Source of the DNA: Pseudomonadota bacterium
Lineage (GTDB): Bacteria; Pseudomonadota; Gammaproteobacteria; Burkholderiales; Thiobacillaceae
Assembly: GCA_029558905.1 (NCBI GenBank)
Contig: JAKQCX010000035.1
Span: forward strand, 186,001 to 250,000
Direction: 5' to 3'
Length of the DNA: 64,000 nt
Shown in pieces: positions 31,081 to 53,679 of the stretch. A program made the translations under genes and the position numbers. Positions within the stretch are counted from its first letter, which is position 1, and each line of letters opens with the position of its first letter. The notes under the pieces were generated by a model. The model did not search any database. It was not told where the DNA came from and saw only the letters and a program-made list of their open reading frames with translations.

Positions 31081-31168
31081 GGAAGTCTGCATTCAATTTC
31101 TCTGCCTGGTTGCCGATAAGCCGGATGCCGATGCTGTCTAGTACACTCGCTCACCCGGCGTGAGGCCC

Positions 31169-31216: not shown

Positions 31217-31291
31217 ATGCAGCCTGAACACCACCCTGGCGTCTACCCCGCCACGACCCCCGCCCGCATCGCCGCGGAGGCTGCGTGGTGA
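31217..31291 (+). CDS. Possible 24-codon leader ORF overlapping the exosortase start
   Basis: ATG 31217 opens 24 codons (MQPEHHPGVYP...EAAW) whose TGA overlaps the xrtA GTG at 31288 as GTGA. No clear ribosome-binding site precedes it and the peptide matches nothing I know. It may be chance in high-GC DNA or a coupling leader. Confidence 0.2.
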   Translation: MQPEHHPGVYPATTPARIAAEAAW

Positions 31292-32799
31292 CCATGCATC
31301 CGGCGACCCGCGACTGGTGGAAGGCATTCGGCCTGATCGCCCTGGTCTGGGCAGCTCTGTTCCTGCTGCTGCGTCCCACCGGCGCCGACATGGTGGCCAT
31401 CTGGGAACGATCCGAGACCTACGCCCACGGCTACGTGGTGCTGCCCATCGCCCTCTGGCTGGTGTGGCGCAAGCGCCACCTGCTCATGGCCAGCCCGGTG
31501 GCGCCAGACTGGCGCGTCCTGGCCTTTGCCCTGGTCGCCGCCACATGCTGGCTGTTGGCCCGGATCATGAGCGTGAACGTGGTGGAACAGTACGCCTTCG
31601 TGGGTCTGCTCATCTGCGCGGTGTGGCTGCTGCTGGGCAGCAAGGCCGCGCGCGTGATGCTCTTCCCCCTGGGCTACCTGCTGCTCATGGTGCCCAACGG
31701 CGACAACTTCCTGCCGCAGCTCATGAACATCACCGCCGACATCACGGTGTTCATCCTGCGGCTCTGGGGCCTGCCCGTATTTCGCGAAGGCACCTTCTTC
31801 TCCCTGCCCAGCGGCGACTGGAGCGTGGTGGAAGGCTGCTCCGGCATCCGCTACATCATCTCCTCGGTCACCCTGGGTGTGCTGTATGCCTATCTGACCT
31901 ATCGCACGCTCTGGAAGCGCATCGCCTTCAGCATCGCCGCCTTCGTGGTGCCCATCCTGGCCAACGGCATGCGCGCCACCCTCATCGTCCTCATCGCCCA
32001 CTATTCCGACATGAAACTGGCCCTCGGGGTGGACCACTTCATCTATGGCTGGGTGTGGTTCGGGGTGGTCATGCTCCTCATGTTTGCCGTGGGCAACATC
32101 TGGCGGGAAGACACCCTGGCCGAAGAGCACCAAGCCCCCCCCGCCTTGTCTCCGAAGCTGGGCATCCTTCCCGCCGGGACGCTGCTGGCTCTGGTGGCCC
32201 TGTTCGCCTGGTATGCGCATCACCTGGGCAACCGTCCCCCCCTGCCCTCGCCGCTGGCGCGGGTGGCCGTGCCCGCAGGCTGGAGCGAGTCCCCCACGCC
32301 CGTCACCGAATGGACGCCCAGCTGGGCCGGCCTGGACGATCAACGCAGCCTGCACCTGCAAGGCGATGGCGCGCGCGTCATGCTGTACCTGGGCTGGTAC
32401 AGCACCCAGCGCCAGGGCTCGGAGCTGATCAACTTCGACAACCAACTCGTGCCGCAAAAGCATCCCGTCTGGCGCAAGCCCACGGAACGCGCGCGCGACA
32501 TCGTCATCGGCGGCCAGACGCTGCATTTGCGTGAGGCCACGGTGGATTCCCGTTCCCTGGGCCAGCGCCTGCTGATCTGGTACTGGAACCGCATTCCCGG
32601 CGAATCCACCACCAATACCCTGGAGGTCAAGCTGGCCCTGGGCCTGCGGGAATTGCGGGGTGCGGACGATGCCGGCGCGGTGGTGATCCTCGCCACCCCC
32701 TATGTGGATCAGCCCAGCGAGGCGGAGGCGGTGTTGCGCCGCTTCGTGGCCGCCCTGCAGCCCGTCATGAACCCCGTGCTGGACAAGCGGCAGCCATGA
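31288..32799 (+). CDS. xrtA: Exosortase A fused to EpsI-like domain (XrtA-EpsI)
   Basis: Inner-membrane transpeptidase-like enzyme that processes PEP-CTERM proteins. The first ~280 residues form about eight transmembrane segments carrying the conserved Cys in VEGCSGIRY (about 184), Arg in ANGMRATL (about 229) and His in GVDHFIYGW (about 250). The remaining ~200 residues form an extracytoplasmic EpsI domain (YLGWYSTQRQGSEL...), a known XrtA fusion. GTG 31288, 7 bases after GGAGG, is the best start; GTG 31285 and ATG 31294 are alternatives. Its stop overlaps the next glycosyltransferase (ATGA). No PEP-CTERM substrate was seen in the window. Confidence 0.95.
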   Translation: MTMHPATRDWWKAFGLIALVWAALFLLLRPTGADMVAIWERSETYAHGYVVLPIALWLVWRKRHLLMASPVAPDWRVLAFALVAATCWLLARIMSVNVVEQYAFVGLLICAVWLLLGSKAARVMLFPLGYLLLMVPNGDNFLPQLMNITADITVFILRLWGLPVFREGTFFSLPSGDWSVVEGCSGIRYIISSVTLGVLYAYLTYRTLWKRIAFSIAAFVVPILANGMRATLIVLIAHYSDMKLALGVDHFIYGWVWFGVVMLLMFAVGNIWREDTLAEEHQAPPALSPKLGILPAGTLLALVALFAWYAHHLGNRPPLPSPLARVAVPAGWSESPTPVTEWTPSWAGLDDQRSLHLQGDGARVMLYLGWYSTQRQGSELINFDNQLVPQKHPVWRKPTERARDIVIGGQTLHLREATVDSRSLGQRLLIWYWNRIPGESTTNTLEVKLALGLRELRGADDAGAVVILATPYVDQPSEAEAVLRRFVAALQPVMNPVLDKRQP

Positions 32800-33947
32800 C
32801 GGACGGCCGCCCGCTTATCGCCCATGTGGTCTATCACTTCGGTACAGGCGGCATGGAGAACGGCATGGTGAACCTGTTCAACCACTTGTCGCCGGAACAC
32901 TTCCGACATGCAGTCATCAACCTGGCGGGCTACGGCGACTTTCGCCGGCGCATCACCGCCCAGGATGTGGCCTTTTTCGACCTAAAAAAACGCCCCGGGC
33001 ACGACTACAGCTGGATGCCCCGCCTGTCCCGCCTGCTGGCGGAATTGCGGCCCGCCATCCTGCACACCCGCAACCTCAATGCCCTGGAAGCCCAGTTCGT
33101 GGGCGCCACTCGCCGCGTGCGGGGGCGGGTGCATGGCGAGCACGGCCGGGACGTGAGCGACCTGGAAGGCCGCAACTGGAAATACAACCTGCTGCGCCGG
33201 GCCGCCCGTCGGGTAGTGCACCGCTACATTGCCGTCAGCCAGGACCTGGCGGGCTGGCTGCGGGAAGCCGTACACGTGCCGGCCGCGCGCATCCACCAGA
33301 TCTACAACGGCGTGGACCAGGCGCGCTTCCACCCCCGTGACGCGGACACCCTCCCGCCCGCGGAGGCCGCCACATTCCTGCGCGGGGCCCGCTGTGTCAT
33401 CGGCAGCGTGGGCCGCATGGCGGCGGTGAAGGACTACCCCACGCTGGCGCGGGCCTTCATCCATCTCTGCCGGCACAGTCCGGAGCCGGCCGGTCTGCGG
33501 CTCGTCATCGTCGGCGACGGCACGGCCCGGGCCGAATGCCAGGCCCTGGTGGATGCAGCCGGCCTGGGTGGCCAGGCCCTGTTTCCCGGCGACCGCAGCG
33601 ACACTGCCGATTGGCTGCGCAGCTTCGATGTCTTCGTCCTGCCCTCCCTGGGGGAGGGCATCTCCAACACCATCCTCGAGGCCATGGCCACCGGCCTGCC
33701 GGTAGTGGCCACCCGGGTGGGCGGTACGCCCGAGCTGGTGCGGCAAGGGGTTTCCGGCAGCCTGTGGACCCCCGGCGACGTGGCCGGGCTGGCGCATCTG
33801 CTCAGCGCCTATGCCGCCGACCCCTTGCGCCGCCAGCGCGAAGGACTGGCCGGCCTCGCGCGTGCGGCACAGGACTTCTCCTGGCTGCGGGCGGCCGCGG
33901 CCTATGAATCCGTCTATACAAGCCTTTTGCACCCAAACCATGACTGA
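32796..33947 (+). CDS. XrtA-associated sugar transferase (TIGR03088-like, GT4)
   Basis: 383 residues. The opening PLIAHVVYHFGTGGMENGMVN and the motif RVHGEHGRDVSDLEG are characteristic of the exosortase-A-associated TIGR03088 glycosyltransferases. The C-terminal Rossmann domain contains IGSVGRMAAVKDYPTL, VIVGDG and the GT4 EX7E region PSLGEGISNTILEAMA. It presumably transfers a sugar from a nucleotide donor to a lipid-linked oligosaccharide at the cytosolic membrane face. It is coupled to xrtA and overlaps wecB by 8 bases. Confidence 0.9.
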   Translation: MTDGRPLIAHVVYHFGTGGMENGMVNLFNHLSPEHFRHAVINLAGYGDFRRRITAQDVAFFDLKKRPGHDYSWMPRLSRLLAELRPAILHTRNLNALEAQFVGATRRVRGRVHGEHGRDVSDLEGRNWKYNLLRRAARRVVHRYIAVSQDLAGWLREAVHVPAARIHQIYNGVDQARFHPRDADTLPPAEAATFLRGARCVIGSVGRMAAVKDYPTLARAFIHLCRHSPEPAGLRLVIVGDGTARAECQALVDAAGLGGQALFPGDRSDTADWLRSFDVFVLPSLGEGISNTILEAMATGLPVVATRVGGTPELVRQGVSGSLWTPGDVAGLAHLLSAYAADPLRRQREGLAGLARAAQDFSWLRAAAAYESVYTSLLHPNHD

Positions 33948-35037
33948 GATCCTCTGCATCGTCGGCGCCCGGCCCAATTTCATGAAGATCGCCCCCATCA
34001 TGGCGGCCTTCAGTGCCCGGGGCATCCAGGCCAAACTGGTGCACACGGGCCAGCATTACGACCCGGCCATGAGCGACAGCTTCTTCGACCAGCTGGGCAT
34101 TCCCCGGCCGGATGTGAACCTGGAGGTGGGTTCCGCCAGCCATGCGGTGCAGACCGCCGAGATCATGCGCGCCTTCGAGCCGGTGCTGGACCTGGAACAA
34201 CCCAAGGCCGTGCTGGTGGTGGGGGACGTGAACTCCACCATCGCCTGCGCCCTGGTGGCGGCCAAGAAGGGCGTCAAGGTCATCCACGTGGAGGCGGGCC
34301 TGCGCAGCTACGACCGGGCCATGCCCGAAGAGATCAATCGGGTGCTCACGGACCAGCTTTCCGAGCTGCTGTTCACCACCGAACAGGCGGCCCTTGCCAA
34401 CCTGCAACGCGAAGGCATCGACCCCGCCCGGGTGCACTTCGTCGGCAACGTCATGATCGACACCCTGCTGGGCCACCTGGAACGCGCCGTGCCGGCGGCC
34501 CAGACCCTGGGCGGCATGCCGGCCCGGGGCTATGCCGTGGTCACCCTGCACCGGCCCTCCAACGTGGACGATGCCGCCGTGTTCGAGGGCCTGCTGACCA
34601 TCCTGGCCCGGGTGGCGGAGCGCATGGACGTGGTGTTTCCCATCCACCCCCGCACCCGAGGTACGGCGGAGAGATTCGGCTTCAATAGCCTGCTGGAGTG
34701 CCCGGGCATGCGCCTGCTGCCCCCGCAGGGCTATCTGGAGATGCTGGGCCTGACCCGCGACGCCAGCGTGGTCATCACCGACTCCGGCGGCCTGCAGGAA
34801 GAGACCACCGCCCTGGGGGTACCCTGCATCACCGTGCGGGACAACACCGAGCGCCCCGTAACCCTCACCGAAGGCACCAACAGCCTCACCGGCCCGGATC
34901 CGGAAAGAATCTGGCCCGTGTTCGAGGAGATCATGGCCAGCGGTGGCAAGCGCGGCCGCATCCCGGAATTCTGGGACGGCCGGGCGGCGGATCGCATTGC
35001 CGGCCTGCTGCGGGGCTGGCTGGATGCGTTGAACTAG
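33940..35037 (+). CDS. wecB: UDP-N-acetylglucosamine 2-epimerase (non-hydrolysing)
   Basis: Interconverts UDP-GlcNAc and UDP-ManNAc. 365 residues from ATG 33940 ([19 protein letters not shown]). Other motifs are [47 protein letters not shown] and TDSGGLQEE. It overlaps the upstream glycosyltransferase gene by 8 bases. It suggests ManNAc or ManNAcA-type sugars in the glycan made by this locus, although no wecC-type dehydrogenase is present. Confidence 0.95.
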
Positions 35038-35055
35038 GAAGGCGGCACGACAGTC

Positions 35056-36960
35056 ATGTGCGGCATCACCGGCATCTTCGACCTGCGCGGCCAGCGCCCC
35101 ATCGACCGGGACGTCTTGCAGCGCATCAACGACATGCAGTGGCATCGCGGCCCCGACGAAGCGGGCCTGCACCTGGAGCCGGGCCTGGGCTTCGGCCACC
35201 GGCGCCTGTCCATCATCGACATCGCTGCCGGCCAGCAGCCCATGTTCAACGAGGACGGCAGCGTGGCCGTGGTGTTCAACGGCGAGATCTACAACTTCGT
35301 CGACCTGATCCCGGAGCTCACCACCCTGGGCCACAGATTCAGGACCCGCTCGGACACCGAGACCATCGTCCACGCCTGGGAGCAGTGGGGCGAGGACTGC
35401 GTGCACCACTTCCGCGGCATGTTCGCCTTCGCCCTGTGGGACCGGAACCGGCAGGTGCTGTTCATGGCGCGCGACCGGCTGGGGGTGAAGCCGCTGCACT
35501 ACGCGGTCACCGAGGACGGCTTCCTGGTGTTCGGCTCGGAACTGAAGAGCCTCACCGCCTGGCCGGGCTTTCGCCGCGACATCGATGACGAGGCGGTGGA
35601 AGACTACTTCGGCTACGGCTACGTGCCCGAACCGCGCACCATCTACAGGTCGGCGCTGAAGATGCCTCCGGGTCATCGCCTGCTCATCAAGCACGGCCAG
35701 CCCGTACCGGCGCCGCAAGGATACTGGGACGTGCCCTTCCAGCCCGTGGGCGCCCTCAGCCTAGAGGCCGCCGAATCCGAGTTCATCGCGCGCTTCCGGG
35801 AGGCGGTGCGGATCCGCATGGTGGCCGAGGTGCCCCTGGGGGCCTTCCTCTCCGGCGGCGTGGATTCCTCCGCCGTGGTGGCCATGATGGCCGGGCTATC
35901 CGACCAGCCGGTGAAGACCTGCTCCATCGCCTTCCCGAACCCAAGGTACGATGAATCCGCCTACGCCCGGCAGGTGGCGGAGCGCTACCGCACCGACCAC
36001 CACATCAACCTGGTGGAGTCCGACGACATCGGCCTGGTGGACGAACTGGCCCGGCTCTACGACGAGCCTTATGCCGACTCATCCGCCATGCCCACCTACC
36101 GGGTGTGCCAGCTGGCACGCAGGGACGTGACCGTGGCCCTGTCCGGCGACGGCGGCGACGAGAACTTCGCCGGCTACCGGCGCTACCGCTGGCACTCCTA
36201 CGAGGAGCGCATGCGCCGCCTGCTGCCCTATGGCGTGCGCAAGCCCCTGTTCGGCTTCCTCGGCCGTGCCTATCCCAAGGCGGACTGGGCCCCCAGGGTA
36301 TTGCGTGCCAAGACCACCTTCCAGGCCATGGCCCGCGACACGGTGGAAGGCTACTTCCACGGCGTCTCCATCATGGGTGACGAGCTGCGCGACAAGGTCT
36401 ACAGCGCCGCCTTCAGGAAGCGTCTGAACGGCTACCGGGCGGTAGAGGTGCTGCGCCGTCACCACGCTCGCTCCCCGGTGCGTGACGGCGATGCCGTCTC
36501 CCAGGTGCAGTACCTGGACATGAAGACGTACATGGTGGGCGACATCCTCACCAAGGTGGACCGGGCCAGCATGGCCCATGCCCTGGAGGTGCGCGTGCCC
36601 TTCCTGGACCACCAGCTCATGGAATGGGTCTCCGGCCTGCCGGTGGACTACAAGCTCCGGGGCGCCGAGGGCAAGTACATGCTCAAGCGGGCCATGGAAC
36701 CCTTTCTTCCCCACGACATCATGTACCGCCGCAAGATGGGCTTCTCCATCCCCCTGGCCGAGTGGTTCCGGGGGCCGCTGAAGGGCAGACTCTACACGGC
36801 GCTGGCCTCGCCGCGCATGGCCGACACCGGCCTGTTCGACATGGCCTTCCTGAAACGCATGGCCGACGACCACACCCGGGGGGTGCGCGATCACAGCGCC
36901 GCCCTGTGGTCCCTGTACATGTTCGAGGCCTTTCTGCGCAACAGCGGGGGCCAGACATGA
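35056..36960 (+). CDS. asnB: XrtA-associated glutamine amidotransferase (AsnB-like)
   Basis: 634 residues. An N-terminal Ntn glutaminase domain has the catalytic Cys at position 2 (MCGITGIFD) plus HRRLSIID and VFNGEIYN; the C-terminal asparagine-synthetase domain has the PP-loop LSGGVDSSAV and LSGDGGDENFAGY. It matches the exosortase-A-associated amidotransferase group (TIGR03108 type), thought to amidate a sugar or protein carboxylate during EPS assembly rather than to make asparagine. It starts 18 bp after wecB. A repeat element lies just downstream. Confidence 0.92.
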   Translation: MCGITGIFDLRGQRPIDRDVLQRINDMQWHRGPDEAGLHLEPGLGFGHRRLSIIDIAAGQQPMFNEDGSVAVVFNGEIYNFVDLIPELTTLGHRFRTRSDTETIVHAWEQWGEDCVHHFRGMFAFALWDRNRQVLFMARDRLGVKPLHYAVTEDGFLVFGSELKSLTAWPGFRRDIDDEAVEDYFGYGYVPEPRTIYRSALKMPPGHRLLIKHGQPVPAPQGYWDVPFQPVGALSLEAAESEFIARFREAVRIRMVAEVPLGAFLSGGVDSSAVVAMMAGLSDQPVKTCSIAFPNPRYDESAYARQVAERYRTDHHINLVESDDIGLVDELARLYDEPYADSSAMPTYRVCQLARRDVTVALSGDGGDENFAGYRRYRWHSYEERMRRLLPYGVRKPLFGFLGRAYPKADWAPRVLRAKTTFQAMARDTVEGYFHGVSIMGDELRDKVYSAAFRKRLNGYRAVEVLRRHHARSPVRDGDAVSQVQYLDMKTYMVGDILTKVDRASMAHALEVRVPFLDHQLMEWVSGLPVDYKLRGAEGKYMLKRAMEPFLPHDIMYRRKMGFSIPLAEWFRGPLKGRLYTALASPRMADTGLFDMAFLKRMADDHTRGVRDHSAALWSLYMFEAFLRNSGGQT

Positions 36961-36993
36961 ACCGCCTAATGCCCCTGGCCGGGTCGCGCCCCG

Positions 36994-37083
36994 TTTTGCA
37001 AAAGGGGGACAGGGTGGGTTCCTGCTGCGCCGGCGCAGCATTGCCGTGCCGGAATCCCCCTCTATCTCCCTTTGGAAAAGAGA
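36994..37083. repeat. Palindromic MITE/REP-like intergenic repeat
   Basis: Imperfect inverted arms (36994-37022, TTTTGCAAAAGGGGGACAGG...; 37051-37083, ...TCCCTTTGGAAAAGAGA) flank a perfect 18-bp palindrome at 37023-37040 (TGCTGCGCCGGCGCAGCA). The AAAGGGGGA/TCCCCCT arm type is common among dispersed bacterial intergenic repeats. It fills the gap between the amidotransferase and the next glycosyltransferase. Confidence 0.65.
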
Positions 37084-37117
37084 GAAGTGCACCCCACCAT
37101 CCATTGACGTTTTCTGC

Positions 37118-38335
37118 ATGAGCCTGCGCGTCCTGCACGTCTTCGACCACTCCCTGCCGCTGCACTCGGGCTATACCTTCCGCAGCGCCAACATCCTGCG
37201 CGGTCAGCGCCGCCTGGGCTGGGAAACCTTCCATCTCACCAGCCCCAAGCAGCTCGATGCCCAGGGCCTGGAAGAGGAGGCGGACGGCCTGCGCTTCTAC
37301 CGCACGCCCCGCCCCGGCGGCCTGGCCAGCAGGCTGCCGGTACTGAACCAGTGGGCCCTCATGGAGGCCACCGAGGTCCGTCTCATGGACCTGGCCAAAC
37401 GGCTGCGCCCGGACCTGATCCACGCCCACTCCCCCGTGCTCAACGCCTGGCCCGCCATCCACGTGGGCCGTGCCCTGGGCATCCCTTCGGTCTATGAGAT
37501 CCGCGCCTTCTGGGAGGACGCCGCCGTGGACCACGGCACCCAGCAGGAGGGCGGCCTGCGCTATCGCCTCACCAAGTCCATGGAAACCCGGGCAGTGCGC
37601 GCCGCCAACCAGGTGGTCACCATCTGCCAGGGCCTGCGCGGCGATCTCATCGCCCGCGGCATCCCCGCCGGCAAGATCGGCGTGGTACCCAACGCCGTGG
37701 ACATCGAGCACTTCCAGCCCAGCACCGGCGCCGATCCCGGGCTGAAGGCTAAGCTGGGCCTGGCGGGTTGCCGGGTGATCGGCTTCCTGGGTTCCTTTTA
37801 TGCCTACGAGGGTCTGGACCTGCTGCTCGCCGCCCTGCCGCGGATCCTGGAGCAGGCCGCGGACGTGCGCGTGCTGCTGGTGGGCGGCGGCCCCCAGGAG
37901 GCCAACCTCAAGGCCCAGGCGCAAGACCTGGGCTTGAGCGACAAGGTGGTGTTCGTGGGCCGGGTGCCCCACAGCGAGGTGGGCCGCTACTACGACCTGG
38001 TGGACCTGCTGGCCTACCCGCGCCACGCCATGCGCCTCACCGACCTGGTGACGCCGCTCAAGCCCCTGGAGGCCATGGCCCAGGGTCACCTGCTCATTGC
38101 CTCCGACGTGGGCGGCCACAGGGAACTCATCGAGGACGGCAGCACCGGTTTCCTGTTCCGCGCCGAGGATGGGGAGGACCTGGCGCGCAAGGCCCTGACG
38201 GCGCTCGACCTGCCCGACCGGGGTACGGCCATTCGCGCCAACGGCCGACGCTTCGTGGAAACCGAGCGCAACTGGGCGCGCAGCATTGCGCACTATCGCG
38301 CCATCTATGGGGCCGCCCTTGGCCGCACACTCTGA
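37118..38335 (+). CDS. XrtA-associated glycosyltransferase (TIGR04063/Daro_2409-like, GT4)
   Basis: 405 residues from ATG 37118 (MSLRVLHVFDHSLPLHSGYTFR). This opening, together with YEIRAFWEDAAVDHGT, is typical of the exosortase-A-associated Daro_2409 family. The C-terminal GT-B domain shows VIGFLGSFYAYEGLDLL, LLVGGGP and the donor-binding region LTDLVTPLKPLEAMAQG. It likely acts on the lipid-linked repeat unit in the cytosol. The repeat element upstream may weaken coupling to asnB. Its 3' end overlaps the next gene by 29 bases. Confidence 0.9.
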   Translation: MSLRVLHVFDHSLPLHSGYTFRSANILRGQRRLGWETFHLTSPKQLDAQGLEEEADGLRFYRTPRPGGLASRLPVLNQWALMEATEVRLMDLAKRLRPDLIHAHSPVLNAWPAIHVGRALGIPSVYEIRAFWEDAAVDHGTQQEGGLRYRLTKSMETRAVRAANQVVTICQGLRGDLIARGIPAGKIGVVPNAVDIEHFQPSTGADPGLKAKLGLAGCRVIGFLGSFYAYEGLDLLLAALPRILEQAADVRVLLVGGGPQEANLKAQAQDLGLSDKVVFVGRVPHSEVGRYYDLVDLLAYPRHAMRLTDLVTPLKPLEAMAQGHLLIASDVGGHRELIEDGSTGFLFRAEDGEDLARKALTALDLPDRGTAIRANGRRFVETERNWARSIAHYRAIYGAALGRTL

Positions 38336-39410
38336 ACCCCGCACGCCGCCGGGCCGACTGGCCCTGATAGGCCCGCTGCCACCACCCTCGGGCGGCATGG
38401 CCAACCAGACCCTGCAGCTCGCGCGTCTGTTGCAAGGCGAAGGGGTACGCGTGGAAATCGTGCAGGTCAACGCCCCTTACCGGCCGGCCTGGACGGGTCG
38501 TGTGCCGGTGTTGCGCGCGGCCTTCCGCCTGCTGCCCTATCTCCATCGCCTGTGGTGCGCGGCCGGGCGCAATCAGCTGTTCCACATCATGGCCAACTCC
38601 GGCTGGTCCTGGCACCTGTTCGCCGCACCGGCCATCTGGATCGCCCGTCTGCGCGGCATTCCCGCGGTCGTCAATTACCGGGGCGGCGAGGCGGAACCCT
38701 TTCTGCGCAAGTCGGCAGGCGCAGTACGCTTCTCCATGCGCCGCGCCGCCGCGCTGGCAGTGCCCTCCGGCTTTCTGCGGGAGGTCTTCGCGCGCTTCGG
38801 CGTGGACGCCCGCATCGTGCCCAACATCATCGATCTGGAGAAATTCCATGCCGGCAATGCGCATCCTGCCGGCATCCACGTGCTCGTGGCACGCAATCTC
38901 GAGCCGCTCTATGACATCGCCAGCGCCCTGCGCGCATTCGCCCTGTTGCGCGAGCGCCATGCCGGTGCACGCATGAGCGTGGCCGGATCGGGCCCGGAAC
39001 GGAACCACCTGGAACGGCTCGCCGAAGAGCTCGGCATCGGCGGGCGGGTCCGCTTCACCGGCCGCCTCGACAGCGAGGCCATGGCCGTGCTTTATCGCGA
39101 GGCCACCCTGAGCCTCAACCCATCCCTGGCCGATAACATGCCCAACTCGGTGCTGGAGGCCCTGGCCTGCGGCCTGCCCGTGGTCAGCACCGACGTGGGC
39201 GGCGTACCCCATCTGGTGCGCCACGAACATACCGCGCTGCTGGTGAAGCCCGGCGACGCCGAGGGCATGGCGCAAGCCATGATCCGCCTGATCGAGGACG
39301 AGACCTTGCGAGCGAACCTGATACGCAACGGCAGCGAGCACGTACGCGCCTTCACCTGGGAACGGGTAGGCGAGAAGTGGATGGGCCTCTACCGTGAGGT
39401 GCTGGCATGA
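38307..39410 (+). CDS. Glycosyltransferase family 4
   Basis: 367 residues; ATG 38307 is inside the end of the previous gene, and a TTG at 38316 is an alternative. N-terminal PLPPPSGGMANQTLQLAR is a GT4 acceptor-domain opening; the C-terminal domain carries VARNLEPLYD, VAGSGPERN, LNPSLADNMPNSVLEALA (EX7E-type) and STDVGGVP. Sugar specificity cannot be read. The stop overlaps the next start (ATGA), tying it to the PaaK-like gene. Confidence 0.88.
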   Translation: MGPPLAAHSEPRTPPGRLALIGPLPPPSGGMANQTLQLARLLQGEGVRVEIVQVNAPYRPAWTGRVPVLRAAFRLLPYLHRLWCAAGRNQLFHIMANSGWSWHLFAAPAIWIARLRGIPAVVNYRGGEAEPFLRKSAGAVRFSMRRAAALAVPSGFLREVFARFGVDARIVPNIIDLEKFHAGNAHPAGIHVLVARNLEPLYDIASALRAFALLRERHAGARMSVAGSGPERNHLERLAEELGIGGRVRFTGRLDSEAMAVLYREATLSLNPSLADNMPNSVLEALACGLPVVSTDVGGVPHLVRHEHTALLVKPGDAEGMAQAMIRLIEDETLRANLIRNGSEHVRAFTWERVGEKWMGLYREVLA

Positions 39411-40801: not shown

Positions 40802-40813
40802 AACCCGCAAGCA

Positions 40814-42848: not shown

Positions 42849-42857
42849 GGCAGCGCC

Positions 42858-44159: not shown

Positions 44160-44204
44160 AGCCATGCAAGCCAGCCGTATCCCACTTCCGACCCAACCGT
44201 GTCC

Positions 44205-45023
44205 ATGCTGAAAGTCGTCAAGAACCTCTACGATTACCGCGAGCTGATGCTGACGCTGGCGTGGAAGAACATCGCCCTGCGCTACAAGCAGGCCTACCTG
44301 GGCATCGCCTGGGCCATCATCAAGCCAGTCACGCTCATGCTCATCTTCACTCTGGTGCGTGCATTCGTGGGCATAGAGAGCGGAGACGTGCCTTATCCCA
44401 TCCTGGTATTCGCCGCGCTCCTGCCCTGGACCTTCTTCCAGGAATCCACATCGGATGCGGTGAACAGCGTGGTAGGCAATACGGCGTTGATCAAGAAAAT
44501 CTACTTTCCGCGCGAGATCTTCCCCATCACTTCGGTGATGACCAAGCTGGTGGAACTGGGCATCAATTTCTTGATCCTGGCCGGACTGATGGTGTGGTAC
44601 GGCATGCTGCCTTCCATCCATATCCTTTGGGTACCGCTGCTCCTCGTCTATACGGTGTTGGCGGCCTTGACCATCGCCCTTGCCGGAGCCGCCGTAAACG
44701 TGTACTACCGCGACGTGGGCCAGGCTCTGCCCGTGCTGCTTTCCCTGCTGATGTACGCCTCGCCCGTCATCTATCCGCTGCAGCTCGTCAAAGACAAGCT
44801 GCTGACCCAGCAGGCGGCCGGGGAATGGTCGAATGCGCTCTATACGATCTACACGCTGAATCCACTCGCCGGCATCATCGATGCCTTCCAGAATGCAGTC
44901 CTCAGGGGTACGGCCCCCGATCCGCATGCCATGCTGCCCGGCATGGTTTCTATCCTGCTGCTGCTGCCGCTGAGCTACCTGTACTTCAAGCGCGCGGAAA
45001 GTTTCTTCGCCGATGTCATCTGA
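44205..45023 (+). CDS. wzm: Polysaccharide ABC exporter permease (Wzm-like)
   Basis: 272 residues, ABC-2 type membrane protein with six transmembrane helices; the start LMLTLAWKNIALRYKQAYLG and LKKIYFPRE-like loop (LIKKIYFPREIFP) are Wzm/KpsM/TagG hallmarks. ATG 44205 chosen; a GTG at 44199 is possible. With the downstream ATPase it exports completed lipid-linked glycan across the inner membrane. Confidence 0.92.
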   Translation: MLKVVKNLYDYRELMLTLAWKNIALRYKQAYLGIAWAIIKPVTLMLIFTLVRAFVGIESGDVPYPILVFAALLPWTFFQESTSDAVNSVVGNTALIKKIYFPREIFPITSVMTKLVELGINFLILAGLMVWYGMLPSIHILWVPLLLVYTVLAALTIALAGAAVNVYYRDVGQALPVLLSLLMYASPVIYPLQLVKDKLLTQQAAGEWSNALYTIYTLNPLAGIIDAFQNAVLRGTAPDPHAMLPGMVSILLLLPLSYLYFKRAESFFADVI

Positions 45024-45032
45024 GCCCCGACG

Positions 45033-46256
45033 ATGCCCATAATCGAAGTCGAACACCTCACCAAGGAATATCGTCTGGGTGCCATGCAGGGCTTAAAGCA
45101 GGCCCTGCGGAACGCAGCTGCCAGGCTCACGGACAGGACCGTCACGGAGCGTCCTTTGTTCAAGGCGCTGGATGACGTCAGTTTTTCCATCGAACCCGGC
45201 GAGGTGGTCGGCATCATCGGCCACAACGGCGCAGGCAAGAGCACCCTGCTCAAGATACTGGCGGGCATCAGCAAACCTACGGCGGGCCGGATGAGGGTGG
45301 AGGGCCGCATCGCACCGCTGATCGAAGTGGGCGCCGGCTTCGTGCCTGACTTCACCGGACGCGAAAACGTCTACCTCAACGGCAGCATCATGGGGCTGCC
45401 CAGAAGGGAAATAGACCGCAAGTTCGACGAGATCGTGGACTTCGCGGAAATGGCGGAATTCATCGATACACCGGTCAAGCGCTACAGCTCCGGGATGCAG
45501 GTAAAACTGGCCTTCGCCGTGGCCACCAGCATCGCATCCGAGATCCTGATCGTCGACGAGGTACTGGCCGTGGGGGATCTGGCCTTCCAGCGCAAATGCT
45601 TCGACCGCATGGAAGACCTCATCAAACGGCAAGGCCGTACCGTACTGCTGGTCAGCCACAATATTCGCCAGGTCGAGCGCATCTGCCACCGCGTCCTGCT
45701 CATGGACCACGGCCATGTGGCGGCGGACGGCCTGCCCAGTGAAATCTGCACCCGCTTCTACAGCGAGAACGACGAAAAGATCAAAAGGCAATCCGCCCAC
45801 GCGGCGCGCGCGCGCGAGCAAACCACAGGCGATGTGGAGAATGCGCGCGTGGAACTCATCGATGACGCAGGAAATGTCACCGACCGGCTCCATTTCGGCG
45901 AAAGCGCACGCATCAGGCTTTCCTTCGATACGCGGATCCCACTCGTCAACCCCACTTTCGGGATCGGCATACACACCACGGATTTTCTTTATCTCGCCAC
46001 GGAAAACACCCACGAGCGTTTCCAGGGCATGACCCTTCCAGTGGGGCACCATACCCTGGAAATGACCATACCCGTCTTCCCTTTCCTGCCAGGGGCCTAT
46101 TCGGTCCGGGTCGGAATCAACTCGGGTGAGCTCAGCCATGTAAGGTATTACGCGGAATCCCTGGCCACCTTCCGGGTCCTGATTCCCGGACAGCGCATCC
46201 GGGGGAACATGAAGGAGGGATTCGTATCGCTCGCCCCGCAATGGGCGCTGTATTGA
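45033..46256 (+). CDS. wzt: Polysaccharide ABC exporter ATPase with C-terminal glycan-binding domain (Wzt-like)
   Basis: 407 residues. ATPase domain: Walker A GHNGAGKST (about 65), signature RYSSGMQVKLAFA, Walker B ILIVDEVLAVGD and the H-loop SHN. A C-terminal beta-sandwich (about 260-400) resembles the Wzt carbohydrate-binding domain that recognises a modified chain end in O9a-type export. This implies that the exported glycan has a specific non-reducing-end cap, possibly the methyl, formyl or acyl group added by neighbouring enzymes. It is 9 bp after wzm. Confidence 0.93.
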   Translation: MPIIEVEHLTKEYRLGAMQGLKQALRNAAARLTDRTVTERPLFKALDDVSFSIEPGEVVGIIGHNGAGKSTLLKILAGISKPTAGRMRVEGRIAPLIEVGAGFVPDFTGRENVYLNGSIMGLPRREIDRKFDEIVDFAEMAEFIDTPVKRYSSGMQVKLAFAVATSIASEILIVDEVLAVGDLAFQRKCFDRMEDLIKRQGRTVLLVSHNIRQVERICHRVLLMDHGHVAADGLPSEICTRFYSENDEKIKRQSAHAARAREQTTGDVENARVELIDDAGNVTDRLHFGESARIRLSFDTRIPLVNPTFGIGIHTTDFLYLATENTHERFQGMTLPVGHHTLEMTIPVFPFLPGAYSVRVGINSGELSHVRYYAESLATFRVLIPGQRIRGNMKEGFVSLAPQWALY

Positions 46257-46298
46257 ACCCGTATTCCTGACCCGCGCACCATATACGAGTCCTTACGC

Positions 46299-47984
46299 AT
46301 GATGACCAAACGCGACGCCGGCCCAGTCTTGGCAAGCCACTACTACCACTACGCCAGACAGGAAATACTCGATCTTGTGCCACTTGACGCGAGACGCGTA
46401 TTGGATATCGGCTGTGGTGCGGGTCGGCTGGGACATGCCATCAAACTGCGCCAGGATGCCCAGGTGCACGGCATCGAAATGGTGCCCGCTGCAGCCACCC
46501 AGGCAACGGAAGTCCTGGACCACGTATGGGCCTGCCCGGTCGAGGAGGCCCTGGACGAAGTGGCGGACTGCGGCTACGACTGCATCGTTGCCGCGGACGT
46601 GCTCGAACACCTGCAGGATCCCTGGGGGACGCTGGCAAGGATCCGCACCAAGCTGGGTACGGGCGGCAAGCTGGTGGCCAGCATTCCCAACGTCATGAAC
46701 TGGATGGTGCTCAGCGACCTGTTGGAAGGCCGGTTCGAATACCAGACCGAAGGAATCCTCGATAGAACCCATTTGCGATTCTTCACGCGTAAGAGCGTCG
46801 AGGAACTGTTCTGGAGTGCGGGATTCCATATCAAGCACCTCGGCACAACCAGGCGCGGCTTGTCGCCAACACACCACATCCTGGACGCGATGGAAAAGGA
46901 GGGCCTTAGCGGAGATCGGCTCAGACAGGACGGCAATACCTTTCAATTCTTGGTCGAGGCAGAGATCCCGGAGACAGATCCTCACCCAAAGGTTGCCGTC
47001 ATCGTCTTGAACTGGAACGGAAAGAAAGACACCATGGAATGCCTGGAGTCTGTGCTATCCATTGACTACCCAAACTTCGAGGTGATTGTGGTTGACAACG
47101 GCTCCACCGATGGCTCCCAAGCCACGATAAGGGAAAGATTTCCCGCTGTTGCCCTAATAGAGACCGGCCTTAATCTCGGCTACGCAGGTGGCAATAATGT
47201 GGGAATTCGAAGGGCCCTGAGCGATATCAACACCAAATATGTACTAATACTCAACAATGACCTAACCGTTGACAAACATCTGATAACGAATCTGGTGGGC
47301 GCCGCCATCCTGGACCCGAAAATCGGTCTTGCCGGGCCGATCAATTACTATTTTGACGAGCCTGACAAGATATGGGCATCGTATGCCAGGCAGCGTAGGG
47401 TCGGTATACCGGGACATAACCTGAGCACCAATGACATATGCACACCCTGCCGTCACGGGATAATGCAGGTCGATGCCCTCGTTGGAAGTGCCATCATGAT
47501 AAAAAGGCCGGTATTCGAGACAATTGGCCTGCTAGACGAGGATTTCTTCCTTTGCTACGAGGAATTCGATTTTGCCATGCGCGCGAGGAACGCCGGCTAC
47601 AAAATCATCGCGTGCTCCGCGGCTGCGGTCTGGCACAAGATCGGCCAGGCACTTGGGGCGGATGAATCCCCTATGCGCACATATTTCAATACGAGAAACC
47701 GCCTGCTATGGGCGAAGAAACACCTGGATAGACGGCAAAGGAGCGTGCTTCTTCGCAACAATATCAGCGCCATTCTGAAAACAATACCACCGCTCAAATT
47801 ATCGACGACTGGCCATAAAAACCCAATGAAAGGCCTCGTCTGGTCAATCAACACGTGGATCAGGCAGACGAAGAGAAACATGGAGAACCCCGGAAATCTG
47901 GCAAGATTCCATGCGGTCAAGGATTACGTATTCAGTAACTTCGGGGACTGCCCAAATAAGATTAGAACACTGCAGCGCACCTGA
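46299..47984 (+). CDS. SAM methyltransferase-GT2 glycosyltransferase fusion
   Basis: 561 residues in two modules. About 1-225 is a class I methyltransferase: VLDIGCGAGRLG (SAM motif I), DCIVAADVLEHL and FFTRKSVEELFWSAGF, a UbiG/Methyltransf_23 type. About 230-530 is a GT2 domain: VAVIVLNWNGKKDTMECL, VVDNGSTDGSQ, LNLGYAGGNN, ILNNDL (DxD-like), EEFDFAMRA. This could be a chain-capping enzyme that transfers and methylates the terminal residue, consistent with the Wzt glycan-binding domain. Base composition falls clearly from about 46970 on, so the GT half may have a different origin. Confidence 0.9.
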   Translation: MMTKRDAGPVLASHYYHYARQEILDLVPLDARRVLDIGCGAGRLGHAIKLRQDAQVHGIEMVPAAATQATEVLDHVWACPVEEALDEVADCGYDCIVAADVLEHLQDPWGTLARIRTKLGTGGKLVASIPNVMNWMVLSDLLEGRFEYQTEGILDRTHLRFFTRKSVEELFWSAGFHIKHLGTTRRGLSPTHHILDAMEKEGLSGDRLRQDGNTFQFLVEAEIPETDPHPKVAVIVLNWNGKKDTMECLESVLSIDYPNFEVIVVDNGSTDGSQATIRERFPAVALIETGLNLGYAGGNNVGIRRALSDINTKYVLILNNDLTVDKHLITNLVGAAILDPKIGLAGPINYYFDEPDKIWASYARQRRVGIPGHNLSTNDICTPCRHGIMQVDALVGSAIMIKRPVFETIGLLDEDFFLCYEEFDFAMRARNAGYKIIACSAAAVWHKIGQALGADESPMRTYFNTRNRLLWAKKHLDRRQRSVLLRNNISAILKTIPPLKLSTTGHKNPMKGLVWSINTWIRQTKRNMENPGNLARFHAVKDYVFSNFGDCPNKIRTLQRT

Positions 47985-48010
47985 TAACCTACCGCTCACA
48001 TCAGATTCCA

Positions 48011-50415: not shown

Positions 50416-50734
50416 GGGGAGGACATGTCACCGAAACACCTCGACGTGATTGCACCCGCCACGCGGCACCGGCGAAGTGGGTGGCCGTCCTTGACCGCAC
50501 CGGCCTTGCGCATCCTCCATGCCGGCAAGCACCCGCCCTGCCCCTTGGTTCGGGAAGGGAACGGTGTGCCACGCCCATCGCTTGCTGCCCGGCGACCCAC
50601 GGGAGCGCCACCAGGCCTGGCCTGCCAGTCCGGCTCAGACCAGGTTTCAGAAACTGGGCACACGGATCGCCCCATGGTGCCAGGACTCACCCGTGGCCCC
50701 GTCTTGATGCCCGTCATGCGCGGAAAGGAAGGAC
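50416..50734 (+). pseudogene. Gap with possible decayed coding sequence
   Basis: About 320 bases without a convincing gene. A GGGGAGG site precedes an ATG at 50425 that opens a 107-codon frame of low-complexity, Arg/Pro-rich translation; it includes LRILHAGKHPP, reminiscent of the start of a GT4 glycosyltransferase, but no continuation is found. It may be the stump of a deleted glycosyltransferase or just an untranslated spacer. Confidence 0.25.
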
Positions 50735-51895
50735 ATGTCCGCGGGTGAAAGGGTATTCGGCCTGGATTTGTTGCGCGCCGTGGCGATCATGGTAGTCGTG
50801 TACGGGCATGGCATGCATTTCGTCTCGCCGGATCTGCCGATCGAGCTGCTGACCCTGCCAATCCTGGACGGCGTCACTCTTTTCTTCGTGCTGAGCGGGT
50901 TCCTGATCGGCCGCATATTGCTAAAGACCATCAACCACGAGCAGTTCAACGGCCGCATGCTGCTTCAATTCTGGATTCGCCGCTGGTTCAGAACCCTGCC
51001 GAATTACTACCTCGTGCTGACGCTCATCATCCTGACTGCCTTGATCACGGGTGACCGGACGCCGCCAATGCCGGAAAACATGCTTCCCTACTATCTGTTT
51101 TCCCAGAACCTGGCGTGGCCCCATCCAGAGTTCTTCGGCGAGGCATGGAGCCTGGCCATTGAGGAATGGTTCTACCTGACCATTCCGATCCCGCTGTTGA
51201 TCATTTCAAAAGCAAAAAAACTGGACCTGCGCCGGTTCATGTGGCTGTACATCTTCGCCGTTATCGCCGGATCCACCCTGCTGCGGATCTATCTGGTCAG
51301 CATCCATGGTTTCGACAACAAACACGACTGGAATTATGGGCTCAAGATGCAAGTAATCACCCGCATGGACAGCCTCATACTCGGTGTCCTGGGTGCCTAC
51401 GTCAGCCTTTATCACAAGGATATCTGGATCAAGGCGGGACACCCGTTGATATTCTGGAGTGGGGTCGCGCTGCTGTTATTCGACCGGGGCATGCGCCTGC
51501 ACGAGGACAACATGACTTACCTGAACTACCTTGCCCTGTCCATCACTTCTATCGCCACACTCATGCTGCTGCCCAGGCTTTCCACATGGCAGGCAATGCC
51601 GGGCCCCATTGGCAAGGCCATCACCTTCATCAGCGTCATCTCCTATTCCATGTACCTCATCAACCAAGCCTTGATCGCGGAAACCATCATGCCCTATCTA
51701 ATGCCGCGCATGATGCACCTCCTGTGGAGGCTCGGTGACCATGTTCACCTTATCCAGTACACCCTGTTTTGGGTTTTCACCATTGCCGGTTCGGCCATGC
51801 TTTACCGCTACTACGAAAAACCAATGACCCATTTGCGCGAACGATTCTCCAGAGGACGCCACACCCCTGCCCAGGCCTTCCAGCGCACCAGCTGA
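50735..51895 (+). CDS. Acyltransferase family 3 (OafA/YrhL-like) membrane protein
   Basis: 386 residues, about ten transmembrane segments. The N-terminal GLDLLRAVAIMVVVYGHGMHF contains the R...H acceptor pattern of acyltransferase-3 proteins; FFVLSGFLIGRIL, FWIRRWFRTLPNYY and EAWSLAIEEWFYL are further hallmarks. Such proteins O-acetylate or otherwise acylate surface glycans from acyl-CoA. A GGAAGG site lies before ATG 50735. Base composition is lower in GC than neighbouring genes, suggesting transfer. Confidence 0.92.
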   Translation: MSAGERVFGLDLLRAVAIMVVVYGHGMHFVSPDLPIELLTLPILDGVTLFFVLSGFLIGRILLKTINHEQFNGRMLLQFWIRRWFRTLPNYYLVLTLIILTALITGDRTPPMPENMLPYYLFSQNLAWPHPEFFGEAWSLAIEEWFYLTIPIPLLIISKAKKLDLRRFMWLYIFAVIAGSTLLRIYLVSIHGFDNKHDWNYGLKMQVITRMDSLILGVLGAYVSLYHKDIWIKAGHPLIFWSGVALLLFDRGMRLHEDNMTYLNYLALSITSIATLMLLPRLSTWQAMPGPIGKAITFISVISYSMYLINQALIAETIMPYLMPRMMHLLWRLGDHVHLIQYTLFWVFTIAGSAMLYRYYEKPMTHLRERFSRGRHTPAQAFQRTS

Positions 51896-51906
51896 GCACT
51901 GCAGAT

Positions 51907-53079
51907 ATGCGCATCCTCTATGTCAGTGCACGCCCGCCCTATCCCTTCTTTTTGGGCGGGGCGGTGCGCTGTGCCCATCAGTTGCTGCGTGACCTGGCGC
52001 AGCAACTGGGGCAGACCTGCATGGCGGCGGGAGGGGCGGATTACGCCGTGACGCCTTGGTCCTGGCCCGTCCCGGAGGATTACGCAACGCTCGGGATTCG
52101 GGAGAAAAGTCCTGCTCCCCTGGTCTCTCGACTGCCTGCGGGCGAGGGGTATGCCACGCTGGACTGCGGTTATCCTGTGGGTGTGCTGCCTGATTTCCGC
52201 CAATCCCTGGAGGCCCTCATCGATGACTTCCGGCCTGACCTGGTGTGGGCCCAGTTGGAAGGCGCACTGGTAGCCCTGCAAATCGCCCGGCGCAAGGGAG
52301 TGAAGGGCCTATATTTCGTGCACGATGCGGAATTCGACCCGGCGGAGTTGCGCACCGTGGTGGACCTGGGCTGCAGCCTGGTGGCCAGCAGCCATTTCCT
52401 GGCGGCCAAGGCCCTGGTCGCCACGGGCCAGCGCGCCCATGTGGTGCATCCGCCCATGGACCTGTTCTTCGACACCCGTGGCGATGCGCAGGGCTTCGTC
52501 ACGCTCATCAACGCACACAAGGTGAAGGGCCTGGACACCTTCCTGGAGCTGGCCCAGCGTCTACCGCATGTGCGCTTCCTGCTGCAGGAATCCTGGAAGC
52601 TGAAGGAAGATGCCCTGGCGGTCCTGCAGGACCGCTTGGCGGGACTGCCCAACGTGACCTTCCGGCACCGGGTATCGGACATGCGCCAGCTGTACCGCCA
52701 GACCCGTCTGCTGCTGGCCCCGTCCGTGTGGGAGGAGGGCTTCGGCATGGTGGCGGTGGAGGCCCAGTCCTGCGGCATACCGGTCATCGCCAGCGCGCGT
52801 GGCGGATTGCCGGAGTCGGTGGGTGACGGCGGCCTGCTCATCAAGGATTACCGGAACGTGGATGCCTGGGTGGCGGCGGTGGAATCCGTGCTGGGCAGTG
52901 CGGCCAGATATGCCGAGCTGTCCGGCCGGGCCCTGGCCCATGCGCGCTCCGCCGATTTCTCCCCACCGGAACTGGCGCGCCGATTTCTGACCGCCTGCCA
53001 GGCACCCGCCCCCGGGGTCGGTGGACTGGCCCGGGGCCTGCGCGCCATGCGGCGCAGCGCAGCGGGCCTTTGGCGTTGA
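51907..53079 (+). CDS. Glycosyltransferase family 4
   Basis: 390 residues from ATG 51907 (MRILYVSARPPYPFFLGGAVRCAHQLL). The C-terminal domain shows VTLINAHKVKGLDTFLELA, FLLQESW and the donor-site region PSVWEEGFGMVAVEAQSCGIPVIASARGGLPE, a full EX7E motif. It is the last gene of the exosortase A locus; GC is again high and matches the surrounding chromosome. Specificity is unknown. Confidence 0.88.
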   Translation: MRILYVSARPPYPFFLGGAVRCAHQLLRDLAQQLGQTCMAAGGADYAVTPWSWPVPEDYATLGIREKSPAPLVSRLPAGEGYATLDCGYPVGVLPDFRQSLEALIDDFRPDLVWAQLEGALVALQIARRKGVKGLYFVHDAEFDPAELRTVVDLGCSLVASSHFLAAKALVATGQRAHVVHPPMDLFFDTRGDAQGFVTLINAHKVKGLDTFLELAQRLPHVRFLLQESWKLKEDALAVLQDRLAGLPNVTFRHRVSDMRQLYRQTRLLLAPSVWEEGFGMVAVEAQSCGIPVIASARGGLPESVGDGGLLIKDYRNVDAWVAAVESVLGSAARYAELSGRALAHARSADFSPPELARRFLTACQAPAPGVGGLARGLRAMRRSAAGLWR

Positions 53080-53561: not shown

Positions 53562-53603
53562 TGATGAGGCCGAAGATCCGGTTGCCCGAACCTTCTCGAT
53601 TCC

Positions 53604-53679
<76 letters not shown>

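What the first reader, a model, noticed from the sequence alone, without database searches (positions are those of the whole stretch)
31285..53079. XrtA glycan island with a non-standard gene set
About 22 kb on one strand starts with XrtA-EpsI and has the expected XrtA markers (TIGR03088-like and Daro_2409-like transferases, amidotransferase, O-glycosylation ligase). It also uses a Wzm/Wzt exporter with a glycan-binding domain and lacks a visible chain-length kinase (Wzc/EpsG), an EpsL-type porin, PrsR/PrsT and any PEP-CTERM target. Combining an ABC exporter that reads a chain-end mark with a protein O-ligase and a sorting enzyme suggests a pathway in which a capped glycan is exported and then linked to sorted proteins. 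Flanks are housekeeping (aroB, tRNA genes).
Basis: partly seen in the sequence, partly recalled or inferred. Interest (0 to 1): 0.75.

Follow-up and report, generated by a model that had tools for sequence, protein, structure and literature searches.

The report
Split exosortase locus beside glycan exporter
This stretch is one half of a known bacterial protein-sorting and slime-making system whose other half sits elsewhere in the same genome, joined at a variable site to a separate sugar-chain exporter; the pairing is uncommon and mildly interesting, but the genes said to be missing are not missing.

Summary
The island is real (31285-53079, one strand, between aroB and tRNA genes), but "non-standard gene set" is mostly an effect of seeing one window. 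Elsewhere the same 2.6-Mb draft genome has 11 PEP-CTERM proteins, PrsK/PrsR/PrsT with EpsB2, and the XrtA-type chain-length protein, kinase, export protein, outer-membrane protein, ATPase and FemAB; a separate XrtB locus holds EpsL. In several relatives these genes run straight into the XrtA block; here the locus is split.

The Wzm/Wzt block is the unusual part: 3 of 27 genomes with the XrtA-type ligase have it within 25 kb. Relatives explain it: the site beside aroB is a glycan hot spot. In the genus (20 sites read of 21 found) it holds wzm or remnants in 7, xrtA in 1, both here, neither in 11. GC3 falls from 0.88 to 0.76 between the modules. So two modules meet at one site.

Whether they form one pathway is open. 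This genome shows no other Wzy_C ligase candidate outside exosortase-type loci, but 11 of 16 genomes with both ligase and Wzt_C do. Wzx/ABC complementarity (Fisher 0.0013) does not survive the tree.

The parts
29992..31092 (-). aroB, left flank and the neighbour of the glycan hot spot
   Evidence: TIGR01357 395 bits, cut-off 305
31285..32799 (+). xrtA-epsI fusion, exosortase A (module A starts)
   Evidence: TIGR03109 332.5 bits, cut-off 208; TIGR02914 122.9; about 190 bp head-to-head from aroB
32796..33947 (+). TIGR03088-family glycosyltransferase (stp2)
   Evidence: 481.7 bits, cut-off 409
33811..35037 (+). non-hydrolysing UDP-GlcNAc 2-epimerase (wecB type); true start probably near 33949
   Evidence: TIGR00236 295.7 bits, cut-off 210, match begins at residue 47
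35056..36960 (+). XrtA-system amidotransferase
   Evidence: TIGR03108 1065 bits, cut-off 817
37046..38335 (+). TIGR04063-family glycosyltransferase (stp3); match begins at residue 28, so the true start may be later
   Evidence: 624.7 bits, cut-off 442
38286..39410 (+). GT4 glycosyltransferase
   Evidence: PF00534 123 bits
39407..40801 (+). PaaK/CapK-like adenylate-forming protein
   Evidence: best NCBIfam NF045666 98.7 bits, below cut-off; PF00501 26.2, below cut-off; 73-82% identical in G001, G003, G007, G019, G022, 41-44% in others
40814..42022 (+). conserved (alpha/alpha)-toroid protein, role unknown, possibly a sugar epimerase-like enzyme
   Evidence: PF13243 26.4 bits (cut-off 26.1); model mean pLDDT 69, best PDB match a cellobiose 2-epimerase, TM 0.63, 17% identity
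42015..42848 (+). formyltransferase-domain protein
   Evidence: PF00551 54.7 bits
42858..44159 (+). TIGR03097 putative O-glycosylation ligase, Wzy_C family (module A ends)
   Evidence: 532.8 bits, cut-off 188; PF04932 74.3
44199..45023 (+). Wzm, ABC-2 permease (module B starts)
   Evidence: PF01061 54 bits; 10 of 399 order genomes score 463-564 bits against the profile of this subfamily, next full-length match 205
45033..46256 (+). Wzt, ATPase with C-terminal glycan-binding domain
   Evidence: PF00005 84.1, PF14524 56.7 bits; PDB 8dku 1.9e-56 over 45-370
46299..47984 (+). methyltransferase-GT2 fusion, candidate chain-end or backbone enzyme
   Evidence: PF13489 69.7 and PF00535 78.7 bits
48011..49084 (+). 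GT4-like glycosyltransferase
   Evidence: PF00534 38.4 bits
48874..50415 (+). weak GT4-like protein, start uncertain
   Evidence: PF13692 29.4 bits, cut-off 27
50735..51895 (+). acyltransferase-3 membrane protein
   Evidence: PF01757 79.9 bits
51769..53079 (+). GT4 glycosyltransferase, start uncertain (module B ends)
   Evidence: PF13692 75.3 bits; 61% and 55% identical partners next to Wzm/Wzt in G323 and G273
53486..53679 (-). tRNA-Glu and tRNA-Ala, right flank
   Evidence: ARAGORN

Best explanation
The island is two glycan modules joined at a variable site next to aroB. Module A (31285-44159) is the distal half of the ordinary XrtA/PEP-CTERM exopolysaccharide system; its proximal half is on contig C17, its regulators and first sugar transferase on C32, and its PEP-CTERM targets are scattered. 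Module B (44199-53079) is an ABC-transporter-dependent polysaccharide cluster of the kind that in relatives lies head-to-head with aroB without XrtA genes. Most likely working: B's glycosyltransferases build a chain on undecaprenyl-PP in the cytoplasm, an end mark (perhaps methyl) is read by the Wzt C-terminal domain, and Wzm/Wzt flips the chain. A periplasmic Wzy_C-type ligase then joins it to an acceptor, lipid A-core or a surface protein; in this genome the visible candidates are TIGR03097 here or its C26 paralogue. XrtA separately cuts PEP-CTERM tails and hands the new C-termini to the XrtA-system product. Shown here: gene content, the split, the hot spot, the composition step, and the lack of another Wzy_C candidate in this draft genome. 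Inferred: lipid carrier, cap, ligase substrate, acceptor.
For: The canonical set is present but split: TIGR03007, TIGR03018, TIGR03027, TIGR03016, TIGR03015, TIGR03019 and TIGR03087 on C17, and PrsT, PrsK (read as a cut fragment) and EpsB_2 on C32, all over cut-off; PrsR 738 bits on C32; 11 PEP-CTERM over cut-off. C17-type genes run straight into xrtA..ligase in G001, G003, G006, G022 and G027. aroB sites: in the genus 20 of the 21 sites found were read (no site found in G008 and G018, the partial G004 site not read): wzm head-to-head in 7 (G005 remnants plus another wzm, G007, G010 another Wzm, G016, G017 a fragment, G019, G022), xrtA head-to-head in 1 (G009), both here, neither in 11. Seven further sites outside the genus, picked partly because a hit lay near: wzm within 4 kb in 3 (G027, G033, G315), xrtA in 1 (G030), neither in 3. 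GC3 0.877 for module A, 0.755 for B, 0.804 for the rest of the window. Ligase tree: G000, G006 and G014 are not one clade, p-AU 1.3e-36, and a Wzx-type genome (G003) falls inside the G006/G014 group. Own Wzy_C matches: TIGR03097 on C12 and C26, plus two below cut-off, beside the C26 gene and in the XrtB locus.
Against: The modules lie on one strand 40 bp apart with no promoter-like match on that strand between them (sigma-70 consensus scan only), so they may be co-transcribed. Wzm of this subfamily also lies near XrtA-system genes away from aroB in G006 and G014, near PrsR/PrsK/EpsB_2 in G273 and near a TIGR03097 paralogue in G323: with this one 5 of the 16 genomes in which I saw this Wzm (three of the 16, G064, G338 and G080, were poorly read by my gene caller); not tested for chance. 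Among 27 genomes with the ligase, strong Wzx and Wzt_C tend to replace each other. For the ligase step: 11 of 16 genomes with both ligase and Wzt_C have a further Wzy_C protein that could serve, PF04932 may miss divergent WaaL proteins, and this genome is 89.8% complete.
Confidence: 0.57

Rival explanations
1. One pathway: Wzm/Wzt has replaced the XrtA-type Wzx flippase, and the end-capped glycan is the glycan that TIGR03097 and XrtA join to sorted proteins.
For: Exporter complementarity among 27 TIGR03097 genomes: Wzx+ABC 4, Wzx only 10, ABC only 12, neither 1 (Fisher 0.0013); at 90% or more completeness 4/10/10/0 of 24. Strong PF13440 Wzx tracks the ligase: 14 of 27 with it, 2 of 34 without. 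No PF13440 match and only weak PF01943 matches (28.5 and 19.6 bits) in this genome. ABC near XrtA-system genes at several unrelated sites. A second, unrelated Wzm/Wzt near TviB/TviC-like genes on C3 could make the O-antigen.
Against: Only 3-4 independent changes on the ligase tree, 0-1 of them informative: no phylogenetic support. Thresholds (400 and 150 bits) were set after seeing gaps in the score lists. Of the 16 genomes with this Wzm, 8 besides this one have it (or a fragment) at aroB without XrtA genes there, and 9 of 34 genomes without the ligase have ABC and no strong Wzx. The XrtA-type chain-length protein is kept in 12 of 12 ABC-only ligase genomes, which suits a Wzx/Wzy-like route.
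Confidence: 0.25
2. The Wzm/Wzt block is simply the LPS O-antigen cluster, ligated to lipid A by a WaaL not recognised here, and its nearness to XrtA is coincidence (overlaps with the best explanation, differing in the ligase).
For: The same Wzm subfamily stands at aroB without XrtA genes in 8 other genomes; neighbouring genes and Wzt C-domains differ between genomes as in O-antigen clusters; Wzt_C also occurs in 10 of 34 genomes without the XrtA-type ligase; 11 of 16 genomes with both ligase and Wzt_C have a further Wzy_C protein.
Against: No Wzy_C match outside exosortase-type loci in this genome, and none outside the ligase and its paralogue locus in G007, G008 and G016; G017 has one on an unread contig, G014 one elsewhere (these six were picked because one search had shown few matches). 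A second ABC polysaccharide cluster exists on C3.
Confidence: 0.38
3. The split and the joint are assembly or binning errors of a draft genome.
For: The genome is a 35-contig draft, 89.8% complete.
Against: The island is internal to a 277,823-base contig with housekeeping genes on both sides.
Confidence: 0.04

Closest known systems
XrtA/PEP-CTERM exopolysaccharide system (Haft et al. 2006, PMC1569441, passages read)
   Same: XrtA, TIGR03088, TIGR04063, TIGR03108, CapK-like protein and TIGR03097 here; PrsK/PrsR/PrsT, EpsB_2, chain-length, kinase, export and FemAB genes and PEP-CTERM targets elsewhere in the genome. The paper's table gives Thiobacillus denitrificans EpsH as Tbd_0290 and Tbd_1792 and PrsK/R/T as Tbd_0195-0198, so a dispersed set is already on record.
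   Different: Block next to aroB, cut off from its C17 half and followed by Wzm/Wzt; 8 of 27 ligase genomes have a Wzx within 15 kb instead.
ABC-transporter-dependent O-antigen clusters (Wzm/Wzt with glycan-binding domain; PDB 8dku and 7k2t, their source organism recalled as Aquifex)
   Same: Permease, ATPase with C-terminal domain, several glycosyltransferases, a methyltransferase domain
   Different: No kinase-methyltransferase terminator recognised; no conventional WaaL found in this draft; next gene upstream is an XrtA-type ligase
Porphyromonas type IX cargo anchoring to A-LPS (Veith et al. 2020, PMC7468200, passages read)
   Same: Works-like analogy: sorted C-termini joined to an amino-acid-modified sugar; that paper links VimA to TIGR03019 and PGN_1234 to TIGR03108, both present in this genome
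   Different: Different sortase and secretion route; no such linkage for XrtA in what I read

Membership tests
XrtA/PEP-CTERM exopolysaccharide system | Exosortase A | tested here: met
   TIGR03109 332.5 bits, cut-off 208
XrtA/PEP-CTERM exopolysaccharide system | PEP-CTERM target proteins in the genome | tested here: met
   11 over cut-off, none on C12
XrtA/PEP-CTERM exopolysaccharide system | PrsK, PrsR, PrsT | tested here: met
   C32: PrsK fragment 365.9/300, PrsT 783.8/312, PrsR 738.4/502.6
XrtA/PEP-CTERM exopolysaccharide system | XrtA-type chain-length protein, tyrosine kinase, export protein, outer-membrane protein | tested here: met
   C17: TIGR03007, TIGR03018, TIGR03027, TIGR03016, all over cut-off
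XrtA/PEP-CTERM exopolysaccharide system | Cleavage and anchoring of PEP-CTERM proteins by XrtA | not testable with these tools
   needs a mutant and surface proteomics
ABC-dependent polysaccharide assembly | Wzm permease and Wzt ATPase | tested here: met
   PF01061 54 bits, PF00005 84 bits
ABC-dependent polysaccharide assembly | Wzt C-terminal glycan-binding domain | tested here: met
   PF14524 56.7 bits, cut-off 30.4
ABC-dependent polysaccharide assembly | Chain-end modifying enzyme | tested here: inconclusive
   methyltransferase domain fused to GT2 at 46299-47984; no kinase family matched in the proteins scanned; activity unknown
ABC-dependent polysaccharide assembly | Transfer to lipid A by WaaL | tested here: inconclusive
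   in this genome only two TIGR03097 proteins over cut-off and two weak Wzy_C matches; 11 of the 16 ligase genomes with Wzt_C have a further Wzy_C protein
Single XrtA-ABC protein glycosylation pathway | Exporter co-conserved with the XrtA block | tested here: not met
   Wzt_C within 25 kb of the ligase in 3 of 27 genomes (contigs end early in some, e.g. G001); carriers not one clade in the ligase tree
Single XrtA-ABC protein glycosylation pathway | Glycan from module B on PEP-CTERM proteins | not testable with these tools
   needs glycoproteomics

The most novel reading that the evidence does not exclude
In this family the XrtA-linked TIGR03097 protein is a true ligase that takes chains delivered either by a Wzx flippase or by Wzm/Wzt, so the exporter of the XrtA glycan is exchangeable; here an ABC-exported, end-read chain is what is joined to PEP-CTERM proteins or to the glycolipid they are anchored to.
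Probability: 0.19. Interest if true: 0.65.

Novelty: new variant of a known kind. Interest (0 to 1): 0.36.

Why it matters
What TIGR03097 joins to what, and what XrtA attaches its cut proteins to, are open questions as far as I know (from memory). Genomes that keep the ligase but use an ABC exporter, in which no periplasmic polymerase should be needed, are a natural test of whether it is a polymerase or a ligase. The aroB hot spot and the split also show that single-locus reading of XrtA gene sets misleads.

Tried and rejected
- "Missing genes": rejected by genome searches.
- "EpsL should be here": rejected; EpsL, EpsE, EpsF, EpsD and XrtB form a separate locus on C23.
- [quoted passage not shown]: the one representative annotated (G005) is a MetH-type methionine synthase.
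- "Ligases of ABC-type loci form their own clade": rejected (the group came from gene order, but the tree had been seen). Wzm tree: unresolved, p-AU 0.51, no conclusion; left out of it were the Wzm of G010, G005 and C3 and the G017 fragment; a first build with G010 was also unresolved.
- Exporter complementarity: significant by raw counts, not on the tree. Thresholds (400 bits ligase, 150 bits Wzx) were chosen after seeing score gaps; the weak PF13440 matches in most genomes I took for MurJ-like, untested. Genomes without a strong ligase (34 of 61) were tabulated apart, none discarded.
- "The XrtA-type ligases are the only ligases in ABC genomes": first drawn from six genomes that I had picked for few matches; one search shows further Wzy_C proteins in 11 of the 16 (G005, G006, G009, G010, G014, G019, G022, G027, G033, G050, G051), none in 4 (G000, G007, G008, G016), unclear in G017.
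- Structure of the ligase: mean pLDDT 47.5, not used. Structure of the 40814 protein: pLDDT 69 from a two-row alignment; the fold search gives only a fold class.
- tRNA flank as a shared border: no tRNA in 19 relative loci.
- The search for related loci with the ligase gave only two loci. Paper searches for XrtA with Wzm/Wzt or ABC export listed nothing describing it; I saw the first 20 of 98 and 25 of 42, and the library lacks most subscription journals.
- My simple gene caller misses genes (for example the Wzx of G009, and most genes in the loci of G338 and G064); the aroB-wzm-xrtA neighbourhoods were checked with tblastn.

Full report
WHAT IS THERE. The XrtA-type genes run from 31285 (XrtA-EpsI, TIGR03109 332.5 bits) to the TIGR03097 ligase ending at 44159. 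Wzm (44199) and Wzt (45033) follow after 40 bp, then a methyltransferase-GT2 fusion, GT4-type transferases and an acyltransferase up to 53079. aroB is about 190 bp away, head-to-head with xrtA; tRNA-Glu and tRNA-Ala lie to the right. The exosortase carries the Cys, Arg and His motifs that I recall as catalytic (sequence printed; motif knowledge recalled, no call).

THE MISSING GENES ARE ELSEWHERE. The window is C12:186001-250000 of a 2,605,569-base draft in 35 contigs, 89.8% complete. That genome has 11 PEP-CTERM matches over cut-off, none on C12. PrsR is on C32 (738 bits), beside PrsT, PrsK and EpsB_2. C17 carries TIGR03087, TIGR03019 FemAB, TIGR03015 ATPase, TIGR03016 outer-membrane protein, TIGR03018 kinase, TIGR03007 chain-length protein and TIGR03027 export protein, all over cut-off. 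EpsL, with EpsE, EpsF, EpsD, XrtB and a B-type EpsI, forms a separate XrtB locus on C23. In relatives such as G001, G003, G006, G022 and G027, C17-type genes run directly into xrtA, the amidotransferase, stp3 and the ligase. G009 and G030 share the present arrangement of xrtA next to aroB, and their chain-length genes are on other contigs. The published table of Haft et al. (PMC1569441, passages read) puts T. denitrificans EpsH (Tbd_0290) and PrsK/R/T (Tbd_0195-0198) about ninety locus tags apart, so dispersion is not new.

THE EXPORTER. Wzt_C occurs at E 0.001 or better in 26 of 61 genomes (own plus 60 relatives; 23 over cut-off). Within 25 kb of a TIGR03097 match of 400 bits or more it is found in 3 of 27 genomes: this one, G006 and G014; some contigs end early (G001 about 0.5 kb after the ligase). 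A strong Wzx lies within 15 kb of the ligase in 8 of 27 (G002, G003, G009, G015, G021, G030, G036, G056). In G005 and G019 the gene after the ligase is a roughly 1250-aa frame, and in G016 and G022 one glycosyltransferase comes first; the G005 copy is MetH, and I saw no exporter there. A profile of the three XrtA-adjacent Wzm proteins found 28 of 399 order genomes at E 1e-40 or better; ten of these score 463-564 bits, and the next full-length match is 205. So this is a distinct, uncommon Wzm subfamily.

THE aroB HOT SPOT. aroB was found in 58 of 61 genomes. I read 27 sites: 20 of the 21 found in the genus, and 7 outside it, the latter picked partly because a hit lay near. In the genus wzm is head-to-head with aroB in 7 (G007, G016, G019 and G022 with this subfamily; G017 a fragment; G005 remnants plus a different wzm/wzt; G010 a different Wzm), xrtA in 1 (G009), both in this genome, neither in 11. 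Outside the genus: G033, G027 (a glycosyltransferase between) and G315 (3.6 kb away) have wzm, G030 has xrtA, and G032, G036 and G050 have neither. Here the xrtA..ligase block lies between aroB and wzm. GC3 is 0.877 for module A, 0.755 for B and 0.804 for the rest of the window. The likeliest history is that two modules came together at this site.

ONE PATHWAY OR TWO. For two: the exporter is not co-conserved with the XrtA block, the ligases of the three ABC-adjacent loci are not one clade (p-AU 1.3e-36), and a Wzx-type genome (G003) falls inside the G006/G014 ligase group. For one: this Wzm subfamily lies near XrtA-system genes at other sites too (G006, G014, G273 near PrsR/PrsK/EpsB_2, G323 near a TIGR03097 paralogue), with this one 5 of the 16 genomes in which I saw it (three of the 16 poorly read). 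Among the 27 ligase genomes strong Wzx and Wzt_C replace one another (4 both, 10 Wzx only, 12 ABC only, 1 neither; Fisher 0.0013), while in the 34 without the ligase they do not (1, 1, 9, 23; p 0.51). On the ligase tree there are only 3-4 independent changes, so this is a lead and not a result. As to the ligase: in this genome the Wzy_C matches are the two TIGR03097 proteins and two below cut-off, one beside the C26 paralogue and one in the XrtB locus. Of the 16 genomes with both ligase and Wzt_C, G007, G008 and G016 are alike, G017 has one match on an unread contig, and the other 11 have at least one further Wzy_C protein. TIGR03097 is thus the visible candidate here, but relatives have alternatives, and this draft may lack one.

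KNOWN OR NEW. Both modules are known kinds. Haft 2006 proposed sortase-like cleavage by EpsH (passages); [quoted passage not shown] I found no paper on XrtA with Wzm/Wzt (listings only; 41 and 70 seen in part). I call it a new variant of a known kind, of moderate interest.

OTHER CORE GENE. The 402-aa protein at 40814 is conserved at 68-85% identity in G001, G003, G007, G019, G022 and G033, has only marginal Pfam matches and a modelled (alpha/alpha) toroid (pLDDT 69) whose best PDB match is a cellobiose 2-epimerase (TM 0.63, 17% identity). It deserves its own study.

Noticed in passing
own genome C26:17076-23646 (L047, L048): A second TIGR03097 ligase (269 bits) next to a PEP-CTERM gene, a VanZ-like protein and an 857-aa frame with a weak Wzy_C match; TIGR03097 matches of 198-295 bits occur in 13 of the 23 genus genomes. 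It looks like a dedicated ligase plus target pair.
   Followed up: partly
own genome C23:7203-17543 (L049): XrtB locus (XrtB, EpsI-B, EpsF, EpsE, EpsL, EpsD, WcaJ-type transferase) with its own PEP-CTERM gene.
   Followed up: partly
own genome C3:8409-14932 (L171): A second, unrelated Wzm/Wzt pair (Wzm about 30% identical) near TviB/TviC-like sugar enzymes (below those models' cut-offs), possibly the O-antigen cluster.
   Followed up: partly
L236 (G005) and L241 (G017), beside aroB: Broken remnants of wzm next to aroB, a sign that this site turns over repeatedly.
   Followed up: no
window 40814-42022: Conserved protein without a clear family, modelled as an (alpha/alpha) toroid similar to sugar epimerases.
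   Followed up: partly
window 53756-54703: Selenosugar synthase SenB (TIGR04348, 414 bits, cut-off 300) just right of the tRNAs.
   Followed up: no
window 47000-47999: GC drops to 0.51 inside the methyltransferase-GT2 gene, against about 0.65 for the window, suggesting a recent foreign piece.
   Followed up: no
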